Assembly (NCBI GenBank): GCA_021292105.1
Contig: CM037874.1
Location: 58,692,539 to 58,756,538 of the forward strand
Direction of reading: 5' to 3'
From: Anadara kagoshimensis
Taxonomy: Eukaryota > Mollusca > Bivalvia > Arcoida > Arcidae
Length of the DNA stretch: 64,000 bases
Below the pieces are notes generated by a model. It did no database searches. It worked only from the letters and a program-made list of their open reading frames with translations, and was not told where the DNA came from. Position numbers and translations under genes: made by a program. This document shows positions 4,035-51,052 of this stretch, one piece after another. The number at the start of each line of letters is the position of its first letter. Position 1 is the first letter of the stretch.

Positions 4035-4560
4035 ATATTTTAGAGTAATGAGTTGAGTAATGGTGTTTAACGTCTAAGTCAAAACTATTTCATTTATATC
4101 GAGATGTCGCCAACTATAGGCTAAGGTGAAGAAATTTGCCTGTGCATTGCGCTGGCCCCGGTTTCTCAATCATTCCTTAGCTAAGATTTTCCTTAACCTA
4201 AATCTTGCAAAATTTCAAATCTTTATAATTTTGTCAATTTTCAAGATATTGTGGAATTTAAGGTGTCATTTTTATGATTTTCTAGATTAAACCATTTGCA
4301 TTTAGTTTTGACAAACATATTCACCAGTACTTCAAAAATAGATTACAAAAGTTTGCCTAATTTAAGTTAAGGAAAATCTTAGCTAAGGAATGATTTTGAA
4401 ACTGGGGCCTCATGGCATTATAAAGCAGAGTTCCTCAGCGTGCCAAGCCCACCGTGACACGAGACTTCGTTTATTTTAAGTTCCTATCCGAAAGAATGTA
4501 ATGCCGAGTGCTTGAAAAAGAATAGTCACTACTCGCTTTTAATTATAATAAATTCAATAG
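4035..4560 (-). repeat. 5'-truncated tRNA-derived SINE, split by a MITE
   Basis: 4035-4153 and 4410-4560 match consecutive parts of the SINE at 31970-32306 (GAGTAATGGTGTTTAACGTC, then GCGTGCCAAGCCCACCGTGAC). The tRNA head is missing. A 256-bp terminal-inverted-repeat element interrupts it. Confidence 0.75.
4154..4409. mobile_element. MITE with GGCCCC...GGGGCC termini, inserted in a SINE
   Basis: The termini are inverted repeats of at least 40 bp (ends GGCCCCGGTTTCTCAATC and complement), enclosing an AT-rich core. The same element occurs at 26688-26934 and 50796-51052 with matching length (~250 bp). It has no coding capacity, so any transposase must act in trans. The target duplication is not clear. 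Confidence 0.8.
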
Positions 4561-5740: not shown

Positions 5741-6790
5741 CTATGTTTACAGGGAAACGCCCTGATAATTTCTGTAAAATAATATACATCGGTGTGAGTA
5801 CTATTAACCTCACCAAGAAACACGGGAATTTTCGTTTTCCAGAAATCTTGAAAATTAAAGCTAAAAACCAAAAGTTCAAACTTTGACATTAATCATTCAT
5901 TAGACACACTGTTTTAAACACGGAGATATTTAATAAATGTATGCATTTGAAATAATACAAATTTTGTTTTAGTAAATAGCGGAAATCAGCGATTGGACAT
6001 TTTCACGAACTTTGTACCATTGGTTTTTGTTTCTTTATTATCAGGATTTTAAATTCAGTGAAATCACATGGTTGTTTAGCATCTCTGGGTTTGCCAAACT
6101 ACAGAACTTTATATAAAGATTTTCCTTGGACATTCAGAACCGTTCTGGTAGTTTTTGTTATAATTGTTTATCTGAATAGCCGACTGAAACCTAGGATTTT
6201 TGCACGTTAAAATACATAACCAGATTCATAGTAAAATACAAGGTAAATAAATATGAAAAAAATTGTGACACAATAATAGTGAAGGTAATCAAAATATAAT
6301 AATTATCATAATAATAAAATAAAAAATTTAATAAAATACGACTCTTCAAGTTTTGTTTCACATTTGGATTTGTACCTCAATAATTGCAACCAAACAGGCT
6401 ACATTTAAGCTGTTTTACAAACGTGATGACTTTAATTTTTCTAGTGTCAGCTTTCCATTTCTATGCCGCAATAAATCTCTTTCCCCTGTTTATGTTCTCT
6501 TTGTATTGTAATATAATGCTTGAAAAAAATCGACAAGGATTTACTTCAATTAAGTCGATGTGGCTAATACTTGAGAAAACCAAATTTCTTGGAGAAAAAT
6601 GCTGACTTTTAATCTAAATAAAAACTTCCGCATATAAACTTCTAAACTTTGACCTAAATGGTACATTTCAGAGAGATTTACAAAATAGTTATAGAACTCT
6701 GAGCTAAATGACAACCGTTTGGTTACTAAGCGACCAAAGAAAATTAACGCTTACATAATTACAACTCTAGAGTCTCATAAATTGCAAATT

Positions 6791-6800
6791 TTACTTTCAG
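6791..6800 (+). promoter_or_regulatory. Probable 3' splice acceptor before the otopetrin ORF
   Basis: A pyrimidine-rich stretch ending TTTACTTTCAG abuts the first ATG of the ORF at 6801. This suggests an upstream (possibly non-coding) exon that was not located. Confidence 0.45.
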
Positions 6801-7868
6801 ATGATCACATCAAAGAAAATGGCTGCCACACTACGAAACACAATGTCTGATGTTGTCCATTCGGTTGTTGTTATGCCTCTGACCGCGGGAAATATTGTCA
6901 CCAGGAACGGGAAGCAGCTTCCACGCATGCGTTTTGATGGGCAAATATCAACGTCAGTATTTATTACGTGGATAATTGCCATTGTTTTCGTGATTATGAT
7001 AACCAATTGCTTGGTAATGGCAAACAATATCTTTTCTTTGATATTGGAGATATTTATGTTCGTGATGGAAATATCCTTATCTGTTGCTGTCATTGCAATG
7101 ACTGTTGCCGTCTGCTACTGTCACGCGCCATGGTTGCTTAGAAAGAAAATCAAAGAAATATCCTTGACATTGAAAGTAAAGTTTCTCTGGTTTTTTGCCT
7201 GTGGATACGTATTTTCGACATTAAATGAAATGGCCGAATATGCTAATTGTGAAATGACAACTTCTGACGTAACTTATGACGTCAATACATTAATGACTCA
7301 CAATGTCTTAAAGATAATTGGAATTTTGCTTCAGACTGGCTTTATAAGTTATTTTTCGCAAATCAAATTTCAAAAATCGCTCGGAATGCATTATGGAATG
7401 TTGTTTATAATTTTATCCAATTTGACAAACTGGGGTTTGAACACGGTTCGAGAATACGAGGAATATTTTCATTTTCATTTAAGAAATAACAACACTACCA
7501 ATGATCACGTAATACCATTCATATTTCAAAATAATATATCTTGCTTACAGAACAGTACTTTCGACAAATTCTTTCGGTCAATACATACAAACTTATTTCG
7601 ACTGACGTCCGAATATTACTTGCTGTCTTTGGGGTTACTGTTGGCTATATGGGCAAGCACAGACAAAAACAAAGACAAAGAAGAACAGAACAAGGAGTTA
7701 CAAGCTAATAACAACAGCATGCCTTCACAAACTGACGCTGCGGAAATTAACATTCCGGTAGTACAGAACAAAATGACTCCGAAAATACGGAATCAATCAG
7801 TATTTCGTCGAATTCCGAGAGCGGTAAAACAGAGTCTTCGCCGCTTCTTGAACAATCTGGTGAATTGA
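6801..7868 (+). CDS. Otopetrin-like proton channel, N-terminal half (frame 1)
   Basis: Otopetrins are polytopic plasma-membrane channels that pass protons. This 355-residue frame has hydrophobic helices at about 53-75, 80-105, 127-142, 168-185, 197-215 and 268-286. Family hallmarks are visible: LLQTGFI near 176-182, a histidine-led helix at 197-221 with SNLTNW followed by a conserved Glu (VREYEE), and the SEYYLLSLGLLLAIW helix near 270-284 that corresponds to the family's Glu-Tyr...Trp segment. From about residue 320 the frame becomes basic and non-homologous, while an adjacent frame continues the protein (open from 7751 to 8581). The simplest explanation is one base missing in the AAAA run near 7770, either in this allele, in the assembly, or as a real lesion. 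The first ATG follows an AG acceptor, so further upstream exons are possible. Family assignment is firm; function is inferred. Confidence 0.82.
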   Translation: MITSKKMAATLRNTMSDVVHSVVVMPLTAGNIVTRNGKQLPRMRFDGQISTSVFITWIIAIVFVIMITNCLVMANNIFSLILEIFMFVMEISLSVAVIAMTVAVCYCHAPWLLRKKIKEISLTLKVKFLWFFACGYVFSTLNEMAEYANCEMTTSDVTYDVNTLMTHNVLKIIGILLQTGFISYFSQIKFQKSLGMHYGMLFIILSNLTNWGLNTVREYEEYFHFHLRNNNTTNDHVIPFIFQNNISCLQNSTFDKFFRSIHTNLFRLTSEYYLLSLGLLLAIWASTDKNKDKEEQNKELQANNNSMPSQTDAAEINIPVVQNKMTPKIRNQSVFRRIPRAVKQSLRRFLNNLVN

Positions 7869-8581
7869 CAAAATCGTTACGTAAGAAATCAAAATCCGCA
7901 CAGCTGTTTCGAAGGCGAATTATTTCGTTTTATTCCATGTTGCTATTAGGGGCGTTTCTGTATTTACCGCAGCTTACGGGCACTTTGACGCCCTACTTTA
8001 CTGAGTTCTCTGACAAAAGCAGCTTACGTATGTGGACAATTTACAAAATCTTCTTCTCCTCGTTTAGGTTCTTTCTTATTTTAATAGGATTTTACAAACT
8101 ACACAAAGAATGCGTCCCGAGAACCGATGTGAACGGATTGTATTCAAACGATTATATCCTATTATTCGGCGCCTTTTTCGATGCGGTTTATAACACCTTA
8201 GAGATAGTTGCTGGTGCCGCGTATCATGGAAAAGAAATCAAACGGTCATTGTTCCTGATACAAGTGACCTTTGATCTGTTAGTCGATTACTTTCAAACCG
8301 CGCTTATCCTTCAAGCAAGTCGGTTTAAAAAGGTGGAGAAGAGAGATACATTTTGGCCTATTGAATGTATCTGCTTGTTGTTAAGCGTGATGAACTTTGG
8401 TATTTGGACAGTGTATAGTTTCCAGAAGGTCACGTTTCCAAGCGCTGGCATTGTACCCAAGACAGTGTTTTCCGAAACCACGTGGTATAGCGTTGATTTC
8501 ACGGTGTATCCTATTTCAATATTTTACTTGTTCCATTCGTTTGTAGACTTGTTCTGTCTGTACAAAAAGTTTGACTTCTAA
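7751..8581 (+). CDS. Otopetrin-like proton channel, C-terminal half (frame 2)
   Basis: The frame is open from 7751, directly after a TAA. It starts with a Ser/Glu-rich linker and then gives the second half-channel: helices around LLLGAFLYLPQL, FRFFLILIGFYKL, LLFGAFFDAVYNTLEIVAG, a helix with Gln in IQVTFDLLVDYFQTALIL, CICLLLSVMNFGIW, and a final IFYLFHSFVDLF helix. The last matches the family's conserved C-terminal Phe-Tyr-x-x-His-Ser motif. Together with the preceding frame it makes about 600 residues and 12 helices, the expected otopetrin size. There is no good ATG near the start, so this half is unlikely to be an independent gene. No intron is seen in either half, unlike the other genes here. 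Confidence 0.82.
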   Translation, partial: HSGSTEQNDSENTESISISSNSESGKTESSPLLEQSGELTKSLRKKSKSAQLFRRRIISFYSMLLLGAFLYLPQLTGTLTPYFTEFSDKSSLRMWTIYKIFFSSFRFFLILIGFYKLHKECVPRTDVNGLYSNDYILLFGAFFDAVYNTLEIVAGAAYHGKEIKRSLFLIQVTFDLLVDYFQTALILQASRFKKVEKRDTFWPIECICLLLSVMNFGIWTVYSFQKVTFPSAGIVPKTVFSETTWYSVDFTVYPISIFYLFHSFVDLFCLYKKFDF

Positions 8582-8699: not shown

Positions 8700-9945
8700 A
8701 AAGAATTTCTCATATATTAAATTCAACACGTTTTGATTTAAAAACGATCTAAAAATTAAATAGCAATAACATCTAGTTCTTCGTCTGAAAAATTTTTCAG
8801 CTGTTCAGATAGTCCTTTCACTTTTAATTTACATTTAAATGTCATAATAGATGAATCAATAGTTCGGTTCGATGCGTTCTTATGGAAACCTTCTTTTTTC
8901 TAAACTTTTTTAGGAATTCATTCTCATTTTACCGTTGCAAACTTTCTCTTAAGCGGAGGGCCGTTTGTAGCTGCTACCAAGTGAAGGAATTCCTGATTTC
9001 AAACTATCATTATCAATTATTATATTTTTGATATATTGTATCTTACTAGGATATATACGAGTATATGTTGTATTTGGATAATAACAGTATTTTATTCCTT
9101 CACTATAGTGTATTCCAGAGTGACATACTGTATAAGTAGAAATATTAGCGGTAGGAAACTTGCGATATTGATCTACTAAAATATTTTGAGAGCAAGAAAT
9201 TTTTACGGTTCCGACCATATGTAAAATGAACCAAGAGAAAAAAGAAATTTCCGCTGAGAAGAAATATTCGCGGTAAAAATGTTATCGTGAAAATCGCGAA
9301 TATTTTACCCTCGCAAATGTTTCTTCTCATACAATTCTTACATGTTGTTAATATGTTAAAAGAAAAACAAAATATGAATTATTAAAACTATTATTATATG
9401 ATTATTTTATGTAAATGATTTTGTTGTATAACACTGGTTTTGAGACCAAATATAATTAAAATGTATGCGATTGATTATTGTATTGTGATTTTAACAGGGA
9501 ATTGGTATGCTTGGTTTTGGTCATTATAATTACAATCGATCACGTGACTTGTCTATACATATACATGTCAGGTGATTTGTTGGCTGTTCCGGCGACTGAA
9601 CATGCATGTCGTGAATAGTGGTGATTTGAAATCTTCCAGAAGTTAGAAAACAAACTAAGACCATTGGAATATCATATTAGCTGTTTATATAGTTCCATTG
9701 GCTTTCATTGTCGTGCAAAGGAAACTAATCGTTATAAAACATCATTGCATTTTATCAAAGTTACCTGTTCTATAAAGTTTAAAATTCCTTAAAAACTAAA
9801 CTTTGTTCAATTATTAAGTATTGACTTAGGTGAATTGGTAAAATACATATTGCTACTTCTATTATTCTAATTGCAACATCTTTAAAATATTTGGACTGCA
9901 AACAATTTGGCCCGAGCATTACTGATGAGAAATTTTATTCCGAAA
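8700..9945. other. AT-rich stretch, no gene seen
   Basis: No ORF with recognisable content, no tandem repeats and no clear transposon ends. Confidence 0.5.
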
Positions 9946-10872
9946 CCTCCGTTTATTGCTGCATTATTAAAACAAATTTACTAATAATGTATTATTCCAA
10001 GATCTTATAAAAGCTTAATTTTGTTTTCTCTCGAACATTTACATGTATAAGTGATTGAATTTTACAGGACTCTTCAGCATTATAATAATTTAAGAAAGAC
10101 ACACTTATCCACTTATATTCTTTTCCGCGATTGTCATTTTGTTGTATTTAGACAAACTTGACCATTATATTATGGTTAAGAATTACATAATGTTTTGATG
10201 TAGGATCAAATATTAGTATATTATTATATTTTCTTCCGTGTTTCGTGTAAATGCTAATGTATTTGACGTAGTTGGTTTACTTCGGTTTCCTTCGTTATCC
10301 GAAAACGCATGACCAACACGATATAAGTACAGCAATCTTGACTTCAGAAAATCATATAAAGGCTAGTGTAGTTGACGTTGGTTGTTTTCCCCTGATATTC
10401 CGGTTTCTTTCTCTATTCTAGAACCCATAAGCAACACCATAAAAGTGAAATGGTCTTGATTTCAGACACAAATCACTGGTAAACAACTCAGTCGTACAAT
10501 TTAATTAATTTATTTGCAAATATATACACTTCCAATAGAAATAATTAAGTGGCATGTTGATATAGCGGTTTTTAACACGATTAATTTTTCACATGAGGTC
10601 TATTTTATTTTTTCTCAAATTTTAAGGGTATTTCTCTGCGGAAAATTTTCAACTTAATGTTTTTAAGCTAGATCTTTTCATAATTTTTACATTATATTAC
10701 CCCGACACATACACACACACAAAGAAAAAATCAAGTAAATCAGGAAAATTTTTTAGGTATAAATCAATCAGTATCACAAGTTAAGAAATGAGAAAATTAA
10801 AAAAAAAAATGTATTCCATTATATAATTCGTGAGTTAAATACAGTAAGACACCTGTCGTTTATGTGACTATA

Positions 10873-12447: not shown

Positions 12448-12650
12448 TTATCAAAAACAAACATACTTATCCATTTCCGAATCACAATCCAGAAGCAAAG
12501 TAAAAACTTTGGAACTGACAAGTTAGGTTAGACACGTGAACTTCCACCAGGGAATTGAGGCCGGGTGTTCCGGAAGGGTAAGCACCTCTTGTTTAGCTAG
12601 CTACACCCGTCACGTGTGTAATCAAAATTGTGTGAAAGGAACATGGAACT
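12448..12650 (-). repeat. 3' untranslated tail of the RT element
   Basis: This tail lies directly downstream (minus sense) of the RT stop. It carries the family signature CTTCCGGAACACCCGGCC, then GTCTAACCTAACTTGTCAG and ends in the AGTATGTTTGTTTTTGAT terminus. It serves as reference for the many solo tails in the window. Confidence 0.75.
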
Positions 12651-16345: not shown

Positions 16346-16852
16346 AATGATCAAACACCCACAATAAACGATCTCTGTGATTAAATCACGTGATGGCCAG
16401 TTATTATGTGTTTCTGTCAATCCATTCCGATGCAACAGTCGACCAATGTTGCAAAACAAACCAATACATCGCCTTCAATACTGGATGGCAACATTAACGA
16501 TGAACAATGAAAATGACTTACTGGAAAGTTTTTCGGAATCCTCCGACAACCTCATCACGGAGCAATAAACTGGATAAAACTGAACAATCTTTAGTTTCTG
16601 ACATTGCCCTGGAAAGCAACCTATGGTTTCTGAGATTCCTATGACAGTAGAGACAACCAAATCCTGGTTAAATATCCCTAGTATTTGTCTGATGCAAACA
16701 CGTCATCTGAACATGATACAGTTACGTTCTCAAAACCAAACATGACATCTACATCACTTCCCCGTAGTAAAAGACCTTCAGTCAAACTTCCACTGTTTAT
16801 TTCTCTTAATTTTATATTGAATGCTGTGAGCAACCTACCTGTTTACTGCCGT

Positions 16853-17200: not shown

Positions 17201-17811
17201 TTTTTTCTGTTCCGACAATTCTACTCAGTCCATTCAATACCATTACCGATACATTATTCATGTTTAACTAACCAACAGAGTCCATAGTTTCTATTCTATT
17301 CAATAGAAAAGTGACATCAATAATATAAATAGCAACAGGAAGTTAACAGGTAACGAAATTCCCAATATTGTATTGCTTCGCGGTAACGGTTTAAATAATT
17401 TCGGATTAATACATTAGATATTGATTTTACCACTATAGTTTTTATTATTTGTCAAAAACTGAAAAACGCATTTATATAGTCCTTATAAGGAACCAAAATA
17501 ATTCAGGTGCGATAATACTGTATAGATTATAATAATCAGAATCTGTTATGATTCTTCAAAACTATATTGCTGATGCATGATAATAACAATCACTTCTCAC
17601 CAACACATATTTAGGAATTATCATGTGTATGTCTGTAATGTCCGGATTCTTATTGTATTTGTAAATTATTACATATGTGTATGAGGTCAATATTGTATGT
17701 GGCGTTGGTATGATGTGGTCAGTCAAAAAAGATAGATTGAACAGCCATCTTGCGTCTGTGTGATGTCTGAATATCTACATATATTACTTATTATATTAGT
17801 TTTGATTTTGC

Positions 17812-17857
17812 AGCACTAGACATTTGCAGCGGAATACAATTTCTCAACAGTAGTGCT
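17812..17857 (-). ncRNA. Decayed hammerhead ribozyme
   Basis: On the minus strand, a 7-bp helix I (AGCACTA with TAGTGCT) flanks a core that reads CTGTTGA instead of CTGATGA, and the GAAA box is lost (GCTGC). The overall spacing and the GTC cleavage triplet match the copy at 18991-19032. With both conserved boxes changed it should not cleave. Confidence 0.6.
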
Positions 17858-18451
17858 TGGACCAAAATTAAGATCCCAAAATTGTTATCCAAAGAATCTA
17901 CATGTACGTGATATCAAACCATCAACCAAGTCCACTACAATGTCTGTTTGTGATGTATATCTTTATTGTCTATTTCACTATATCTGCCCGCATTTGTGTC
18001 CATCGCCCATTGCTGCTTTGAGGAAGTTTTATACAATTGATATCAGCATCCAAAATAGTATCCTTGCATTTTACAAAGATATCACCTTGAAATATGATAT
18101 CGGATTAACAATATTCCAGGATACGATACAAATTATCTCCATAATCTAATAACCCAATATCATAACTAAAAGACCAAGGTCACAGGGGGGATTCTGTATA
18201 ATGCTTATATTTCGATGCTGTTGTATTTTCGCTATCTACGCGGTCCAGTGTATTGACACTGCAAATACCATGAATACACTAGTCATCGTTAAACCTCAAA
18301 TATATAACCGTGGAAAGAAAGCAATATACAGTGTACTGTAAATACATCAACTAAGGTATACTCCTTCATAACAAGTATATCCTCCACGAAATTTGGTAAA
18401 TTATAGTTTTGGTCCTTTTGATATTTGTTCAACCACTAAATGAGAAAAATT

Positions 18452-18787
18452 GGTTTAACAACTTTGGTCCAAGTACTAAGGTTTAACAACTTTGGTCCAA
18501 GTACTAAGGTTTAAGAACTTTGGTCCAAGCATTAAGGTTTAACAACTTTGGTCCAATTACTAAGATTTAACAACTTTGGTCCAAGTACTAAGGTTTAACA
18601 ACTTTGGTCCAAGTACTAAGGTTTAACAACTTTGGTCCAAGCATTAAGGTTTAACAACTTTGGTCCAAGTACTAAGGTTTAACAACTTTGGTCCAAGTAC
18701 TAAGGTTTCACAACTTTGGTCCAAGTACTAAGGTTTAACAACTTTGGTCCAAGAACTAAGGTTTAACAACTTTGGTCCAAGCACTTA
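18452..18787. repeat. 28-bp minisatellite, 12 units
   Basis: The unit contains AACTTTGGTCCAAGTACTAA. Twelve units with few substitutions, all the same length, between the two hammerhead motifs. Confidence 0.95.
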
Positions 18788-18990
18788 TGATAAAGATTTG
18801 TATTCGTTTTTGAGGATCTTCAGGTTTTTTTCAGGTTTTAACTAGCAGCAATTTTAGACATAAGTATATTTAGGACAAAACAAAAGTTTTACCTAGTGCG
18901 TTTCAGATATACTAGGGGATGATTAATCCACCAGCAGAAATACTTGTTCAGTAGTGGAAATTACACATTATACAAGTGTTAGTTTTACAG

Positions 18991-19032
18991 CACTAGACAG
19001 CCGTTTCGGAATACGATACCTCATCAGTAGCG
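18991..19032 (-). ncRNA. Hammerhead self-cleaving ribozyme (type I architecture)
   Basis: On the minus strand the 42-nt motif has, in order: helix I 5' arm CGCTA, core CTGATGA, a helix II stem-loop GGTAT-CGT-ATTCC with one U-U mismatch, core GAAA, a minimal helix III (AC-GGCT-GU), cleavage triplet GTC, and helix I 3' arm TAGTG. All catalytic-core nucleotides are present. The predicted cut is after the C at 18996. Such short-stem-III hammerheads are known from Penelope-like elements and animal retrozymes, which fits the retroelement-rich surroundings. Activity has not been shown. Confidence 0.75.
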
Positions 19033-19351
19033 TTTAGATCAAAATTCTGAAACCAATTTTTCCTATTGTATCTATAATGATATATATCTCTCTCTGATCA
19101 AAAGCCCACATCAAATCTATATCACATTCAAGTAGTGACAATCCATGTCTTATTTCCCCTGATCATGAATCTCAAATTAAAATGCTTTGTATACAATTGG
19201 TAATGGATGGTAAACATCAATTCATACCGTTGCATCATTGAAACATGCTAAAGAATCCTTGCTGCACATTTCCCGGAGCTTAGAAACAAAATTTGCCACT
19301 TTGTGTGATAACCATATAATTTAAACATTGTTTTGTAATTTAAATGAATTA

Positions 19352-25598: not shown

Positions 25599-26056
25599 TT
25601 ACGTTGGTTCGGAGGACAGTTGTGTTTCGAGTCTGCGGGATTGTATTGAAGATGGCCGACTGACAACTCTATCCTTATCACTTGCAGATTGTTCCTCTAT
25701 CACTTTGTTCATTTTAGAAGGCTGTTTATGTTTAGTAACTAAATTCAGATCTTTACTTAACTGCAATTTATGTGCCACGAGTAAGAAAACAATAAAACCA
25801 ATAAAGATTACTCCTGACAGGAAGAAGAAATAATAATCCAGATGGCAGTGACTTGTGTCGCCAAACGATCCATCTGTGCTGTTACACGGTAGTCTACAAT
25901 TAATGTTCCCAAGATCTTGATCAAAGAAGAACACATTATGGAACATATACATACTTCCTGTTCCCAGGAAACTTCCAATCCCAGAAAACAGATAGAACAA
26001 TCCCATGATGATTGTTTTCATAGATTTTGGCGCCATTTGATATGCAAATTCTAAAC
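25599..26056 (-). CDS. SLC15A4-like exon 8 with stop
   Basis: Residues 520-671. [14 protein letters not shown], helix 11, a Cys-containing luminal loop, helix 12, then a ~60-residue charged Ser-rich cytosolic tail. TAA at 25599-25601. No obvious poly(A) signal was identified nearby. Confidence 0.93.
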
Positions 26057-29000
26057 CTAAAAAATATTTTGAAAAGCATGTCAAGTAAGTTTTAGATATT
26101 AAATTACAAATGTGAAATTTTGACATGTGAAAAAGATTAAAACTGACTTAGTAATAAGTTTACTTACTATAAAACATGATGAGCACAATATACAATAATG
26201 TACCATATATATGTAGTATATAGGGGTCTGACAAAGACTTGATAATTTGTAGGAACTGTTCTTTCACCAAGCACTTGGCATATAGAAATAGACGTCACAT
26301 AGTTTCTAAAAGGAGACCTTAAAAACTGATACCAAATATCACGTCATGGCACATTAAAGAACTCTTCCTGTACATTCACATAGTTAAAAATTTCTGCCAC
26401 TTCATTTATAGCTGATGACATCTCAATGAAGGTAAAATATTTTTGACTGGCACTTAAAACCCCACTAAATCAATCAATCAATCAATGAATCAATCATAGT
26501 TACCTGCTATACTGGCGAATACTTCACTTATTCCTATGAGAGCATACTGGGGTATCTGCCAGAAGATGCTGATATCAGCAGCATAAAATGTACTTAAACC
26601 TGTAAAAAACATGATAGTTACAAGTAGTTAATGTTCTTATTTAGTAACAACCTGTATATAAAGACCATCTATGAAAATTTAACTCTAGGACCAAGTTCAC
26701 AATCATTCCTTAGCTAAGATTTTCTTTAACTTAAATTTAGCAATTTTTTGTAATCTCTTTTTAAAACTACAGGTGAATATTTTTTTCAAAATTGAATGCA
26801 AATGCAAGTGATCTTAAAAATGACACCTTAAATTCCTCAATATCTTGAAAATTAACAAAATTATAAAGATTTGAAATTTTGCAAGATTTAAGATAAGGAG
26901 ACTCTTAGTTAAGGAATGATTGTGAAACTGGACCAGTGTCACAATCATTCCTTAACTAAGATTTCCCTTAACTTAAATTTCACAAATTTTGGCAATCCCT
27001 GCTGGAACTATGGATGCATGTGTTTAAAGAAACTAACAGGGTTGTAAAACATTATTACAATCTATGCCAATCTTCCATTTCATCAATAATCCCAAATCTC
27101 AAGTCCCAGCTGGACTGTATGGCATTTTATTTCGATGCAACAGTTCACCTAGCTGTAAAATACTGAGGAAATTTGCTGCATTTGACTTACAGTCAATCCA
27201 AGGGAGAGTATTCTACTTGCATACTGATCAATACATGCTAATTTGATGTGGTTTTCATTGCAAATTGACTGACAGTCTATCCAAGGGTGAAAATTCTACT
27301 TGCATGCTATTCAATACTGGCATTTTATGTTGGAGATTAATATTGCAATGGACTAACAGCCAAACCAAGGGTGAGTGTTGTACTTCCATGTTGTTTCAAA
27401 TACTTACAAATATGTTCAGATTAATATTGCAATGGACTAACAGCCAAACCAAGGGTGAGTGTTGTACTTCCATGTTGTTTCAAATACTTACAAATATTTT
27501 CAGATTAATATTGCAATGGACTAACAGCCAAACCAAGGGTGAGTGTTGTACTTCCATGTTGTTTCAAATACTTACAATTATGTTCAGATTAATATTGCAA
27601 TGGACTAACAGCCAAACCAAGGGTGAGTGTTGTACTTCCATGTTGTTTCAAATACTTACAAATATGTTCAGATTAATATTGCAATGGACTAACAGCCAAA
27701 CCAAGGGTGAGTGTTGTACTTCCATGTTGTTTCAAATACTTACAAATATGTTCAGATTAATATTGCAATGGACTAACAACTCATTCAAATGATAGTATTC
27801 TACTTAACTTGCATGCTGTTCAAATAATGACAAATATGCTGGTGTTTAACACTGATGGACAACCAGCCTATCCAAGGGAGAGTACTGTAAATCCATTCAC
27901 TTCACGTAATTGAAATGGAGATAAGCATTAGCCTGGTGAGCCTATAGGGACAAGACACACTTACAGTTTTTCTGTCATCCAATAAAATCTTTGTTTAAAT
28001 TGCTAATTTCTGTCCCTATGTTGATTTCAAAGTTAATTTTAATCAACTAAAGTAAATACAGCTACAACATTAATAGTGTTAACATTGTAAAGCCATACAG
28101 ATCTGACATCTGGTGACATCTCAATATAAGTGAAACAAGCAAATTCAGTGAATAAGGATCCCCCTAAAACATATATGCACTTATGTTCAAAGGGCAACAA
28201 CTCAGGCTAACAATATGTACATCTCCTATCTATGTTGATACTTTGCACCAAGTTTCCTGTAATAGTGCTTCATGATTTTGATGATTTATTTTCGACAGAA
28301 TGACGGACAAATGGACGGAAACTTGAATTTAATATCTCCCTCTTTTTTCAAAAGGCAGGGGATAATTATGTACTGTAGAAACCACTGTGGTTATGACAGT
28401 GAAATTCTCTTTATATCCATAGAAAATCAAATAAATTTGAATAAAGTTTGATATTTTTCACTTACCATCTTGTACCTAGTCGTAACAGGAAATCTGTATG
28501 CGCATCCGCGATTGTCATAAAGTATGTCTGTAAAAAGGAAAATATCGGCGGTATGGGGATTTTACACATGCGATAATGACGATGTTTACACCGGAAGTGA
28601 TGTCCTTGGTGACGTTTTACGTCATATGTGCAACAGAAGCCGCCATTTGCATGGTTTTTTAACATGTTAAATCCCCATAGCACCAACGTTTTTCCCTATG
28701 CAGATATATTTTGGGTTAATCGCAGATGCGCATACATATTTCCTGTTACGACTAGGTACAAGTAAGTGAAAAATATCGATCTTTATTCAAATTTATTTGA
28801 TTTTCTATGGATAAAAAGAGAATTTCACTGTCATAACCACAGTGGTTTCTGCAGTAATTAATAATGTAATTTAATTATATTGAAGACTTACCAATAGTTT
28901 GATCTATTGTATGACTACAACATGGGTGGTCGTTGTCAGGCCAAACTGATTTTAATCTAAACATCTCTAAAATCCCTGCCACAAGGACTGACATTGCTGC

Positions 29001-35529: not shown

Positions 35530-38002
35530 TGTGTGTGTATGTGTGTGTGTGTGTGTATGTGTGTGCACACACTTCTGAAACTCTTGTTTAACTAAGGTTA
35601 TGTATTGTTTATATGATTTTCATTAAAATGATTGATTGATTGATTGAATACTGGATGGATGGATGGATGGATGGATGGATGGATGGATTGAATGCTGGAT
35701 GGATGGATGAATGAATTCATTGATTGAATGCTGGATGGATGGATGAATGAATTGATTGATTGAATGCTGGATGGATTGATTGATTGATTGATTAGGGTTT
35801 AAATCTCAGTCAAGTATCTGATCAAAATAGACATGTAAATATATTTTATATCAGCTTATATAATAAGTGTCGTAAAGTGACATCACATGATGTCACGGTA
35901 TAAAGAAGTAATTTTAGGGAGTATTTAACATGCTTCTGAGGAGTAATTTAACATGTTTATTTAGTATAATGTTTATTTATATTATTATCATTTTCTTGAT
36001 TATCAGCAATGTATAATTTAAGTTATCAATCTTTTATCAAACAAGCTCAAGAGGACTGTACTACTAGATACATGTATATACACAGGTAATAAACTAGACT
36101 ATGGTACCTGTAGCCAAGGTATACAGTACAGACCTGTCAAAAGTTTAACATTCAGCTAACTAAAAGAAGTCAATACGGACCGTCAATACTCTACTTCAAA
36201 TGGCCAAGATGTTGATAGATAATGGCCGTTTATCTACCGAGAGATAGATAGCAGCAGCTGCTGAACTATAGCAAACAAGGGGTCAGCAGAAGCCGCTGAT
36301 TTAACACATTATTTGTTAGCTTAGTGTTAAACTTTGGACAGGTCTGCACTGTATATGACCAGCTGTAACTTGGAGAAAAAATTATAGATAAAACTTGATT
36401 AGATGACCGACTATATTTATGAATTCTATAAGCTTCATGTCAACACAAATGTGGCAAATGACCAATAGTATTTTTGACTGATTAATGTGTTGATGTACAT
36501 TGGAGAAATTGCTGACCGTTCGGACAAGTTTCTGTTTTTGATTAGAACAAATTAGGTATTTGACCAAAAGGACTTTTTAAAAAAATTGATAAATTTATGA
36601 CTGATAACTTATAGTACTTTTGTATGTCCTGATCTAAATGGGGCAGATGACCAGTAGCATAAACAAAATCTTAAGTTAGGCTGGGCACTGTGACAATACA
36701 TATAAGGTGAATGACCATTAGTATTTTGATTACGTTTCCTCATTAAAATTGGAGTAATGACCACAAATAACATATACCAGTAGTAAAATAAAAACCAAGA
36801 CAAATGAATGTCAAAAGTTGTAGAACTAATAAACCCCTCCTCACCCCATCAACACCTAGACCCACCCCAAATATTAACATCTATGACATATGTATGTCAT
36901 GAATCCAATATATTAATATCTATGCAGTGATTTTGTTTCCCTTAAATTACTACCAAATAAAGGTAGTTTCCTCTAGGACAACATGACTAAACTTTCCAAT
37001 TTGACCACAAAAATTCACAAAAAAGTGATAATCTTTGCAATGAGGACCATAGTTATGTTGCCAGCAGGTCATGATGAAGTTGGCTAAATTTCAGAACATC
37101 ACATTTTACCAATTTTAAAGACAGATGGTAATTTTTATTAAAATGTAACAAAATAACTGTATTGAAAATTATATATATATAATGTATGCCCTCATACGTA
37201 CTCCACTCATTGAGTGCCTAGATGATTTAATGAATTAAGTTTAAAGTTTAAGTTTAAATATTTAGTGATTTTTCTATTTCGGCAAAAATTGTTAATGTAA
37301 CAAATTTGGAGCTGCAGTCTTGTTAAAATTTAAAGAAAATTGTGTAGCATATTATACAGTAATATATTTGAAATTAAAATCTTTATAAATTTTATTCATG
37401 TATAAATATGAATTAATTACCTGATCTGCTCCAAAAGGAGTTATATTTGACTTAAAAGTCCCAGCTCCGACAGCGACCACCATTAGTATGACGTAAATTA
37501 AACCAGAACAATTTTCTTCAAAAGCGGCTTCCATCTGACCATTACAGTTCTTTGAGACCCCTGGGCCAGGGTTATCTGGGTCAGTCATTTTACCACATAT
37601 TGGTGGTAAGGTAATATTTCTGTATGAAGAGTTTCCGTATGCCTCTAAATGTTCCTCGGAAATAACAGGAAAGAATGCATAACCAGCTATGTATATCAAC
37701 AAGGCTACTATCAGAGTTTTAAATCTACCAAGGCAAGTGTCTGCCACAAGTCCACCAAAAAATGAGGAAAAATAAGTAATTCCAAAGAAAAAGAACGAAG
37801 CATTCAAGGCATTATAAGATTCCCATAAGAATGGATAAGTATTCAGAAATAAAACTAGGTTTCCGGTCAAACTGTAAAAAGCTAGTCTTTCCAGAGCGAC
37901 GGTAGCCAACACTGAACCCTGGGCAACTTTCACTTTGAAAGAACTGTTCGTTTGATCAACATTTCGTCTAACTGACAAAAGTCGTGTCTGTTCATCTGCC
38001 AT
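25599..38002 (-). CDS. SLC15A4/PHT1-like peptide/histidine transporter, 8 exons, complete
   Basis: Proton-coupled oligopeptide transporter family (POT/SLC15). Vertebrate SLC15A4 exports histidine and peptides from endolysosomes. Exons on the minus strand: 38002-37421, 35093-34913, 33613-33490, 32594-32414, 31172-31032, 29144-28892, 26599-26504, 26056-25599. All junctions are GT-AG, phases agree, and they give 671 residues plus stop. The ATG is preceded in frame by TAA. The N-terminus has an acidic dileucine EQTRLL (4-9), a typical lysosomal sorting signal. Family signatures are [11 protein letters not shown] (83-93), [21 protein letters not shown] and [14 protein letters not shown]. The first Glu of the ExxER proton-coupling motif is Val35 (VALER, 35-39). 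A His cluster (HSHQH...HTH, 389-401) lies in the loop after helix 7. The SLC15A3 versus SLC15A4 relationship cannot be settled here. Confidence 0.93.
26340..26500. repeat. Short dispersed repeat ending in (AATC)n
   Basis: Ends in CAATCAATCAATCAATGAAT within intron 7. It includes GATGACATCTCAATGAAGG, a segment related to those at 28110 and 61620. Probably a SINE or LINE 3' end. Confidence 0.45.
26504..26599 (-). CDS. SLC15A4-like exon 7
   Basis: Residues 488-520. [21 protein letters not shown], the conserved helix 10 of the family. Short 96-nt exon. Confidence 0.93.
26688..26934. mobile_element. MITE, GGCCCC-terminus family, intronic copy
   Basis: Ends GGACCAAGTTCACAATCATT and the complement, with the same core as 50796-51052. 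Located in intron 6 of the transporter gene. Confidence 0.8.
26930..26998. mobile_element. Left half of a second adjoining MITE copy
   Basis: Directly after the full MITE, its first ~65 bp repeat (CACAATCATTCCTTAACTAA) and then stop. A truncated neighbour insertion. Confidence 0.6.
27338..27792. repeat. 84-bp tandem repeat, 5 units plus partial
   Basis: ATTAATATTGCAATGGACTA recurs every 84 bp (27338, 27421, 27505, 27589, 27673, 27757) in intron 6. As 84 is a multiple of three, one frame reads as 28-residue repeats, which is a by-product. Degenerate older units precede it from about 27180. Confidence 0.9.
28185..28365. repeat. Dispersed non-coding repeat
   Basis: Matches 22885-23095 and, more weakly, 39575-39715 (CACTTATG...TGTTGATGCTTTGC). 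In intron 6. Confidence 0.55.
28373..28854. mobile_element. MITE with ~150-bp terminal inverted repeats and TA target duplication
   Basis: The ends CTGTAGAAACCACTGTGGTT and its complement (ending CTGCAG) are flanked by TA on both sides (28371-28372, 28855-28856). The inverted repeats run inward past TTGTACCTAGTCGTAACAGG. The core contains a TGACGTTTTACGTCA palindrome. TA duplications point to a Tc1/mariner-type transposase in trans. Copies lie at 52226-52676 and a decayed one at 58430-58750. Confidence 0.85.
28892..29144 (-). CDS. SLC15A4-like exon 6
   Basis: Residues 404-488. [17 protein letters not shown] (helix 8), a cytosolic loop, helix 9 with AGILEMFRL, then the loop with DQTIG. Confidence 0.92.
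29660..29790 (-). repeat. tRNA-like B-box fragment, probable SINE remnant
   Basis: On the minus strand, GGGGTTCAATCCCC forms a B box/T-arm-like motif after GAGATAAGGTCA. A matching acceptor stem and A box are not convincing, so it is not called as a tRNA gene. Confidence 0.4.
30418..30606 (-). repeat. tRNA-derived SINE (Ser/Leu-type head)
   Basis: On the minus strand it starts with GGCCAAGTGGTCTGAGGC (A box), and a B-box-like GGTTTGAATCT lies ~55 nt further. A non-tRNA body follows. A more decayed copy is at 25150-25380. In intron 5 of the transporter. Confidence 0.6.
30758..30833. repeat. (GA)n microsatellite
   Basis: Nearly pure GA for about 75 bp, in intron 5. Confidence 0.95.
31032..31172 (-). 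CDS. SLC15A4-like exon 5
   Basis: Residues 357-403, 47 codons in phase 0 at both ends. Starts [10 protein letters not shown], the end of helix 7, then a luminal loop with NLTEENIT glycosylation sequons and the His cluster. Confidence 0.9.
31308..31484 (+). repeat. RT-family tails, one longer and one terminus-only
   Basis: 31308-31430 is a tail with an internal deletion (GTGTAGCTAGCTAAACAG then GTTTTTACTTT-like). 31446-31484 is a second, shorter terminus (ATTTGAACATGGACCAGTAT). Confidence 0.6.
31497..31969 (-). repeat. Older tRNA-derived SINE, interrupted
   Basis: 31497-31625 and 31921-31969 match parts of the SINE body and head. Its remaining head piece is at 32320-32334. A younger SINE of the same family split it. 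Confidence 0.6.
31970..32306 (-). mobile_element. tRNA-derived SINE with 13-bp target duplication, inserted in an older SINE
   Basis: On the minus strand it begins CCACTGTGGTAGCTCAGTTG (A box) and has a perfect B box GGTTCGAACCC about 50 nt downstream, giving an internal RNA polymerase III promoter. A ~250-bp unrelated body follows. The 13-bp TCTACCAAATGAG flanks it at 31957-31969 and 32307-32319. It needs a LINE partner for mobility. In intron 4 of the transporter. Confidence 0.85.
32414..32594 (-). CDS. SLC15A4-like exon 4
   Basis: Residues 296-356. [11 protein letters not shown] leads into helix 7 ([12 protein letters not shown]), the family's VKALVKIVP/ALIPYW region. Confidence 0.93.
33490..33613 (-). 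CDS. SLC15A4-like exon 3
   Basis: Residues 255-296, the basic cytosolic stretch ([12 protein letters not shown]) after helix 6. The donor is GTAAGT. Confidence 0.88.
33815..33862. repeat. Poly-T tracts
   Basis: T-rich stretch with G interruptions in intron 2. A shorter T run lies at about 33641-33654. Confidence 0.8.
34600..34905. repeat. Dispersed repeat related to 63340-63660
   Basis: Shares TCTCTTGAGAG, CAAATAC(T/C)CCCC, CTTGACCTT-like and GATTCCTATATACCCCC segments with the end of the window. In intron 2. Confidence 0.55.
34913..35093 (-). CDS. SLC15A4-like exon 2
   Basis: Residues 195-255. Begins VRGEGSRV, then [17 protein letters not shown] (second POT signature). Acceptor TTTTTACAAG, donor G|GTAATT, phase 1 at the end. 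Confidence 0.93.
35494..35805. repeat. (TG)n then (GGAT)n/(GATT)n microsatellites
   Basis: TG dinucleotides run to about 35572; GATT and GGAT tetranucleotides run from about 35625 to 35800. In intron 1. Confidence 0.9.
35810..37350. other. Intron 1 remainder, no feature seen
   Basis: AT-rich intronic sequence with no recognised repeat or ORF of merit. Confidence 0.5.
37421..38002 (-). CDS. SLC15A4-like exon 1
   Basis: Residues 1-194. Dileucine motif, helix 1 with the altered ExxER motif, the GGLVAD signature, a glycosylatable loop (NSS, NIT) and the [12 protein letters not shown] helix. The donor is CAG|GTAATT, phase 0. Confidence 0.93.
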
Positions 38003-38039
38003 TTTTTAAATTTTAAAAAACCACAAAATTAAAATTTCA

Positions 38040-50795: not shown

Positions 50796-51052
50796 GGCCC
50801 CAGTTTCACAATCATTCCTTAGCCAAGATTTTCCTTAACTTAAATATTGCAAAATTTCAAATCTTTATAATTTTGTTAATTTTTAGGATATTCAGGAATT
50901 TAAGGTGTCAATTTTAAGATCACTTCTAGATTAAAACATTTGCATTTAGTTTTGACAAAAATACTCACCAGTAGTTCCAAACAGAGATTACAAATATTGG
51001 CTTAATTTAAGGAAAACCTTAGCTAAGGAATGATGATTGTGAAACCGGGGCC
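50796..51052. mobile_element. MITE, GGCCCC-terminus family, well-preserved copy
   Basis: 257 bp. Ends GGCCCCAGTTTCACAATCAT and complement (GTGAAACCGGGGCC). Best reference copy of the family. Confidence 0.85.

What the first reader, a model, noticed from the sequence alone, without database searches (positions are those of the whole stretch)
18991..19032. Hammerhead ribozyme with complete catalytic core
On the minus strand all core elements are present in order (CTGATGA, helix II, GAAA, two-pair helix III, GTC, closing helix I of five pairs). A random match of all conserved boxes plus three helices is unlikely. Short-stem-III hammerheads are known in Penelope-like elements and animal retrozymes. 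No full element surrounds this one, so it may be a remnant pLTR or an undescribed non-autonomous carrier.
Basis: partly seen in the sequence, partly recalled or inferred. Interest (0 to 1): 0.78.

Follow-up and report, generated by a model that had tools for sequence, protein, structure and literature searches.

The report
Decayed hammerhead-ribozyme retrozyme copy
The motif is a real but worn-out copy of a self-cutting RNA carried by a small jumping element that has thousands of copies in this genome, so the spot itself is ordinary, although the insertion footprints of the family hint at how such elements are copied.

Summary
In detail: minus strand 19032-18991 carries CTGATGA, GAAA, GTC and the described helices. 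Rfam does not accept it (15.2 bits, gathering 34), but intact relatives also fall short (28.1 bits). In the window's own genome the core pattern occurs 6971 times against 1 for the reversed control. A covariance model from 72 of those copies, window excluded, scores the site 67.2 bits (E 1.5e-14) and finds two more decayed copies, 17862-17805 (-) and 9910-9967 (+). Genomic copies are mostly 5'-truncated, some in head-to-tail arrays of about 339 bp: the anatomy of a non-LTR retrozyme (PMC7229834), not of a pLTR. The window copy (80% of 240 aligned bases) is predicted not to fold as a hammerhead and is probably inactive. Most interesting: 65 of 93 inserts read end about 36-43 nt past the cut, or one unit later, and exact-match counts show no excess of stops at the cut, as expected if circular or uncleaved RNA was copied. 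RNA was not tested.

The parts
18991..19032 (-). Decayed type I hammerhead ribozyme (copy A); predicted cut between 18996 and 18995
   Evidence: Sequence; RF00163 15.2 bits at 18990-19033; own-genome model R1 67.2 bits, E 1.5e-14 for 18982-19039
18803..19056 (-). Retrozyme fragment holding copy A: about 30 nt upstream of the ribozyme core, the ribozyme, its 3' tail, the head-to-tail unit junction and part of the next unit
   Evidence: 192 of 240 aligned bases identical (80.0%, gaps left out) to genomic array L004; blastn 19056-18829 at 76.6%
17780..17977 (-). Second retrozyme fragment (copy B); ribozyme core broken (CTGTTGA; GAAAC replaced)
   Evidence: 145 of 189 aligned bases identical (76.7%); R1 57.7 bits at 17862-17805
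9752..9973 (+). Third retrozyme fragment (copy C); CTGATGA and GAAA boxes intact, GTT instead of GTC, helices I and II each with one mismatch
   Evidence: 160 of 218 aligned bases identical (73.4%); R1 57.2 bits at 9910-9967; exact match of the two boxes 9922-9946
18349..18456 (+). Fourth retrozyme fragment (copy D), opposite strand, running into the tandem array
   Evidence: 80 of 105 aligned bases identical (76.2%); its remnant of the ribozyme near 18775-18835 scores only 12.5 bits, E 1.9
18452..18785 (+). 28-bp tandem array, 11.9 copies, made from the 28 nt just upstream of the ribozyme core (includes the 5' strand of helix I)
   Evidence: Tandem Repeats Finder; unit matches those 28 nt of L004 at 23 of 28, none of 20,000 shuffled units as good at its best rotation

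Best explanation
The site is an old, decayed fragment of a non-LTR retrozyme, a small non-autonomous retroelement of about 339 bp. Shown by sequence: thousands of related cores in the genome; 5'-truncated inserts with a largely fixed 3' end; some head-to-tail multimers; a commonest ribozyme sequence whose helix III region ACGGCCGT is self-complementary, so that two molecules are predicted to form a double hammerhead. Inferred: tandem transcripts cut themselves at GTC; monomers are ligated into circles; a reverse transcriptase borrowed from an autonomous element starts at a fixed internal point about 36-43 nt past the cut and copies through the rejoined cut, sometimes round the circle more than once, before integration. 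The window copy then decayed and is probably no longer catalytic.
For: 6971 exact core matches against 1 in the control; 27,096 against 920 with fixed spacing and up to 3 mismatches. A model from 72 genomic copies scores the site at E 1.5e-14. Array cores 338-339 nt apart. Of 93 core-selected sites, 58 alignments end at +67 to +74 after the start of CTGATGAG and 7 more one unit later at +406 to +410, while 5' ends scatter. The 21-nt tail occurs 6496 times, control 0; exact matches fall from 2815 to 2678 at the base across the cut, a loss of 4.9 +- 0.4%, no more than the mean 5.4% per base over the 15 bases between tail and cut. For the commonest ribozyme sequence (letters of L031) the double-hammerhead fold equals the predicted dimer minimum, -34.5 kcal/mol. 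Mussel retrozymes (~350-390 bp, ~5000 ribozyme copies) are circular RNAs in vivo (PMC7229834, section read).
Against: No covariation: 0 of 14 pairs have a change on both sides among 62 distinct rows, and the covariation score does not exceed the shuffles; the structure rests on the match to the hammerhead consensus. The 93 sites were chosen by the core pattern, so each contains the ribozyme by construction, all lie at the start of contig C1, and several are near-duplicates; 22 of 93 end before +67 and 6 end elsewhere. Target-site duplications are weak: of 58 copies one has a 32-bp match between flanks, one 10 bp, eight 8 bp where about 2 are expected, and two of those eight (L077, L086) have the same flanks. 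The cut test uses exact matches only (2815 of 6496 tails) and cannot exclude a few percent of stops at the cut; two further patterns did not complete. Continuity across the cut fits uncleaved tandem RNA as well as a circle; in the Anolis Penelope-like element uncleaved RNA was the main substrate in vitro (PMC11167929 passages). Published invertebrate retrozyme ribozymes mostly cleave as monomers (PMC7761336 passages), which does not favour the dimer reading. No RNA data were available.
Confidence: 0.9

Rival explanations
1. Remnant of the pLTR of an autonomous Penelope-like element that carried its own hammerhead.
For: A reverse-transcriptase fragment lies on the same strand at 13446-12649, and a 3'-end fragment of that element lies at 19488-19349 (-), about 290 bp upstream of copy A. 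A long genomic copy encodes GIY-YIG plus reverse transcriptase.
Against: None of 7 long copies of that element holds an exact hammerhead core in the 7.5-8 kb fetched; one decayed core lies 629 nt before the frame of L114. The site aligns to the 339-bp retrozyme unit. Other Penelope-like families of this genome were not searched.
Confidence: 0.04
2. Chance match to the hammerhead consensus.
For: Rfam score 15.2 bits, below threshold; a loose descriptor expects about 0.1 hit per 64 kb; folds no better than shuffles.
Against: Genome-wide excess of 6971 to 1 and homology well beyond the motif.
Confidence: 0.01
3. An active, retained ribozyme with a host function at this locus (for instance RNA 3'-end processing).
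For: Core boxes and the GTC cut triplet are intact in copy A.
Against: Helices I and II carry mismatches; hammerhead fold +3.8 against a minimum of -7.8 kcal/mol alone, and -6.9 against -20.5 as a dimer. Sister copies B and C in the window are decayed too.
Confidence: 0.05

Closest known systems
Mussel (Mytilus galloprovincialis) non-LTR retrozymes, PMC7229834 (section 14 read)
   Same: Type I hammerhead, thousands of copies (~5000 there), short repeats (~350-390 bp there, about 339 bp in the array read here)
   Different: Sequences could not be compared (supplement not read); the host here is unnamed. A self-complementary helix III region is found here; in the sections read the paper reports a palindromic loop for axolotl, not for mussel.
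Axolotl and newt retrozymes, PMC7229834 (section 15 read)
   Same: Weak helix III, palindromic loop, better prospects as a dimer; 330-350 bp units
   Different: Other animals; 126,247 motifs in axolotl; activity measured there, only predicted here
Penelope-like elements with hammerheads, e.g. PAc of Anolis, PMC11167929 (passages read)
   Same: Hammerhead motif; reverse transcription starts at a fixed internal site past the ribozyme cut, seen as a genomic 'tail'; tandem and partial-tandem copies
   Different: Those encode a large protein; one retrozyme unit here has at most a 106-aa ATG frame when doubled. Distance from cut to start site is about 85-92 nt in PAc (my subtraction from the passages), about 36-43 nt here.

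Membership tests
Metazoan non-LTR retrozyme | Type I hammerhead motif | tested here: met
   Order of boxes and open helix I; RF00163 is the best-scoring Rfam family at the site although below its threshold
Metazoan non-LTR retrozyme | Short repeats (150-450 bp), in tandem in at least some loci | tested here: met
   Five cores 338-339 nt apart at C1:310542-311928; further pairs 325 and 357 nt apart. In the window copy A spans a unit junction
Metazoan non-LTR retrozyme | GC below 50%; no LTR, primer-binding site or polypurine tract; non-coding | tested here: inconclusive
   GC 33.9% for one L004 unit; longest ATG frame 106 aa in the doubled unit, conservation not checked. LTR, PBS and PPT were not searched for
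Metazoan non-LTR retrozyme | Target-site duplications longer than 4 bp when present | tested here: inconclusive
   One 32-bp case (L014), one 10-bp case, mild excess of 8-bp matches among 58 copies
Metazoan non-LTR retrozyme | Expressed as linear and circular RNA; self-cleaves | not testable with these tools
   No RNA data held
Rfam RF00163 Hammerhead_1 | Score at or above 34 bits | tested here: not met
   15.2 bits; relatives 28.1 bits where listed
Penelope-like element pLTR | Hammerhead inside terminal repeats of an element encoding reverse transcriptase | tested here: not met
   0 of 7 long copies of the window's reverse-transcriptase element hold an exact core; other Penelope-like families were not searched

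The most novel reading that the evidence does not exclude
The footprints of this family record the copying step itself: reverse transcription of circular retrozyme RNA starts at one fixed internal site about 40 nt past the healed ribozyme cut, in the manner of Penelope-like elements, and the Penelope-like element with GIY-YIG ahead of its reverse transcriptase that is abundant in this genome (a copy lies in the window) supplies the enzyme.
Probability: 0.25. Interest if true: 0.65.

Novelty: new member of a known kind. Interest (0 to 1): 0.35.

Why it matters
The locus is a fossil of a known class. The family matters more: PMC7229834 (discussion read) proposes that circular RNAs are the templates of animal retrozymes and that LINEs or, more likely, Penelope-like elements move them, without showing either. 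Inserts with a largely fixed start past the ribozyme cut, and no excess of stops at the cut, argue against the linear self-cleaved monomer as the main template and give a genome-only test that can be run in other species. The Rfam type I threshold may also miss much of this family (5 loci tested).

Tried and rejected
Rfam at gathering score: nothing in the window. Permissive whole-window scan: 15 matches, none a hammerhead and none at its gathering score. RF00008 and RF00163 over the whole genome scored only 68 and 73 of more than 110,000 candidates each and are uninformative. Covariation test: none. A hammerhead-like string at 16558 (-) is not among the 24 R1 matches and was dropped as chance. 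Template-jump idea: fragments of the window's Penelope-like element lie within 5 bp of the 5' breakpoint of retrozymes in L007, L016, L027, L030, L035, L060 (same strand) and L017 (opposite strand), but only in L016 and L027 is it that element's 3' end; its fragments are very common in these loci and no background test was made, so I treat this as a weak lead. Shared 3' tail with an autonomous element: I fetched 20 of the 100 listed tail places, picked by hand because no listed exact core lay near; 14 carry a decayed ribozyme, 2 are truncated inside it (L130, L131) and 4 close to the tail (L119, L125, L126, L133); by eye no other common sequence was seen in the 90 nt printed. PDB search of the 1067-aa protein: nothing at E up to 1.

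Full report
What is there. On the minus strand at 19032-18991 stands CGCTA-CTGATGA-GGTATCGTATTCC-GAA-ACGGCTGT-C-TAGTG.

Is it chance? A loose descriptor would find about 0.1 such motif per 64 kb (31 in 20 Mb of random sequence), so the motif alone was not decisive. A tighter core occurs twice in the window, 9922-9946 (+) and 19003-19027 (-), and in none of 100 shuffles. A third place, 17783-17869, matches the site and its flanks at 75%. In both core-intact copies helix II is one substitution away from GGAATNNNATTCC.

The genome answers the question. The window lies in an unnamed 1.115-Gb assembly; that it is an animal is my inference from its size and genes such as an otopetrin. The pattern CTGATGAGN{7,17}CGAAACNNNNGTC has 3478 + 3493 matches, the reversed control 1; with fixed spacing and up to 3 mismatches 27,096 against 920. 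Among 93 sites read, all on contig C1, 64 have helix II exactly GGAATTGTATTCC and 58 have ACGGCCGT at helix III. A covariance model built from 72 of these copies, none from the window, scores the site 67.2 bits (E 1.5e-14), copies B and C 57.7 and 57.2; the next match in the window has E 0.38.

What carries it. Some copies lie in head-to-tail arrays, with five cores 338-339 nt apart at C1:310542-311928. Against three units of that array (L004), copy A aligns over 19056-18803 with 192 of 240 aligned bases identical, across a unit junction; B, C and D align at 76.7%, 73.4% and 76.2%. The 28-bp array at 18452-18785 is an expansion of the 28 nt just upstream of the ribozyme (23 of 28), on the opposite strand to A. 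This is the anatomy of the metazoan non-LTR retrozymes described from mussel, coral and axolotl (PMC7229834; abstract and sections 13, 14, 15 and 17 read).

Does it work? The commonest ribozyme sequence, alone, prefers another fold (hammerhead -7.8, minimum -12.3 kcal/mol), but as two molecules the double hammerhead is the predicted minimum at -34.5, because ACGGCCGT pairs with itself. The 8-nt region can pair fully with itself in 69 of 93 copies when G-U is allowed. Dimeric action is reported for axolotl retrozymes; against this, a passage of a review says that most invertebrate ribozymes of this kind cleave well as monomers (PMC7761336), and the mussel ribozyme cleaved from a cloned repeat at about 0.1 per minute. 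For copy A the hammerhead fold is +3.8 against -7.8 alone and -6.9 against -20.5 as a dimer, so it is probably dead; B and C likewise are not predicted to fold as hammerheads. None of 14 pairs shows a change on both sides among 62 distinct rows: copies look as if they decay freely after insertion. This is computation, not an assay.

How the family moves. In 93 core-selected sites, 58 alignments end at +67 to +74 after the start of CTGATGAG, that is about 36-43 nt past the cut, and 7 more end one unit further (+406 to +410); 22 end earlier and 6 elsewhere. By eye, in the 60 sites printed, the sequence after the end differs from copy to copy, or runs on into a next unit, with no common A-tail. 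The 21-nt tail AAAACTGGTATAATATGTAAT occurs 6496 times, control 0. If linear self-cleaved RNA were the usual template, inserts should stop at the cut. Exact matches fall from 2815 to 2678 across the cut, a loss of 4.9 +- 0.4%, not more than the mean 5.4% per base in the 15 bases before it. So for most copies the template was continuous across the cut: a circle, or uncleaved tandem RNA. Stops at the cut in a few percent of copies are not excluded, and two further patterns meant to extend the test did not complete. The fixed internal start resembles the 'tail' of Penelope-like elements, where reverse transcription starts inside the RNA past the hammerhead; there, however, unprocessed RNA was the main substrate in vitro (PMC11167929, passages).

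Candidate partner. The window's reverse-transcriptase frame at 13446-12649 (RVT_1, 20.5 bits, under the cut-off of 29.6) belongs to a family with 144 scored matches, itself included, the others listed at 95-97% identity. A copy with a 1067-aa frame has GIY-YIG at 203-292 (22.2 bits, cut-off 22.6, E 1.7e-4) before RVT_1 at 814-917 (21.6 bits, cut-off 29.6, E 2e-4). From memory this order is that of Naiad/Chlamys-type Penelope-like elements; the listings of two paper searches did not show the paper I recall. Seven long copies share a 3' end about 200 nt after the stop, and none has an exact hammerhead core. Its 3' end touches the 5' breakpoint of retrozymes L016 and L027, but its fragments are very common, so this is only a lead. 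Target-site duplications are weak.

Verdict. Observation confirmed; the carrier is a retrozyme, a known kind; this copy is a fossil. The family-level footprint is the part worth following.

Noticed in passing
window 13446-12649 (-), with 3'-end fragments near 12449, 16855, 3758, 61111, 47704, 46534, 5667, 19349: Abundant Penelope-like element with GIY-YIG ahead of the reverse transcriptase; 144 scored matches (itself included), frames up to 1067 aa, 7 long copies 5'-truncated with a shared 3' end about 200 nt after the stop.
   Followed up: partly
loci L002 and L042 (and L028, L031, L081): Members of this hammerhead family score at most 28.1 bits with RF00163, below 34, and were listed in only 2 of 5 loci scanned, so Rfam annotation may miss the family.
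   Followed up: partly
L014, around the retrozyme insert: A 32-bp exact match between the two flanks of the insert, the only long target-site-duplication-like case among 58.
   Followed up: no
window 18349-19056: Copy D (+), continued by the 28-bp array, and copy A (-) run towards each other and meet near 18803-18805; inverted pairs of cores also occur in L012, L056 and L073.
   Followed up: no
window 6771-8581 (+): Two overlapping frames matching parts of Pfam Otopetrin, one above its cut-off (41.3 bits) and one below (24.5).
   Followed up: no
window 37355-38005 and 25602-26147 (-): Two frames with sub-threshold matches to POT-family (PTR2) transporters.
   Followed up: no
window 4154-4410, 26687-26931, 50796-51052: Dispersed repeat of about 250 bp with inverted-repeat ends, in both orientations; two sub-threshold plant-microRNA matches overlap it or lie beside it.
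   Followed up: no
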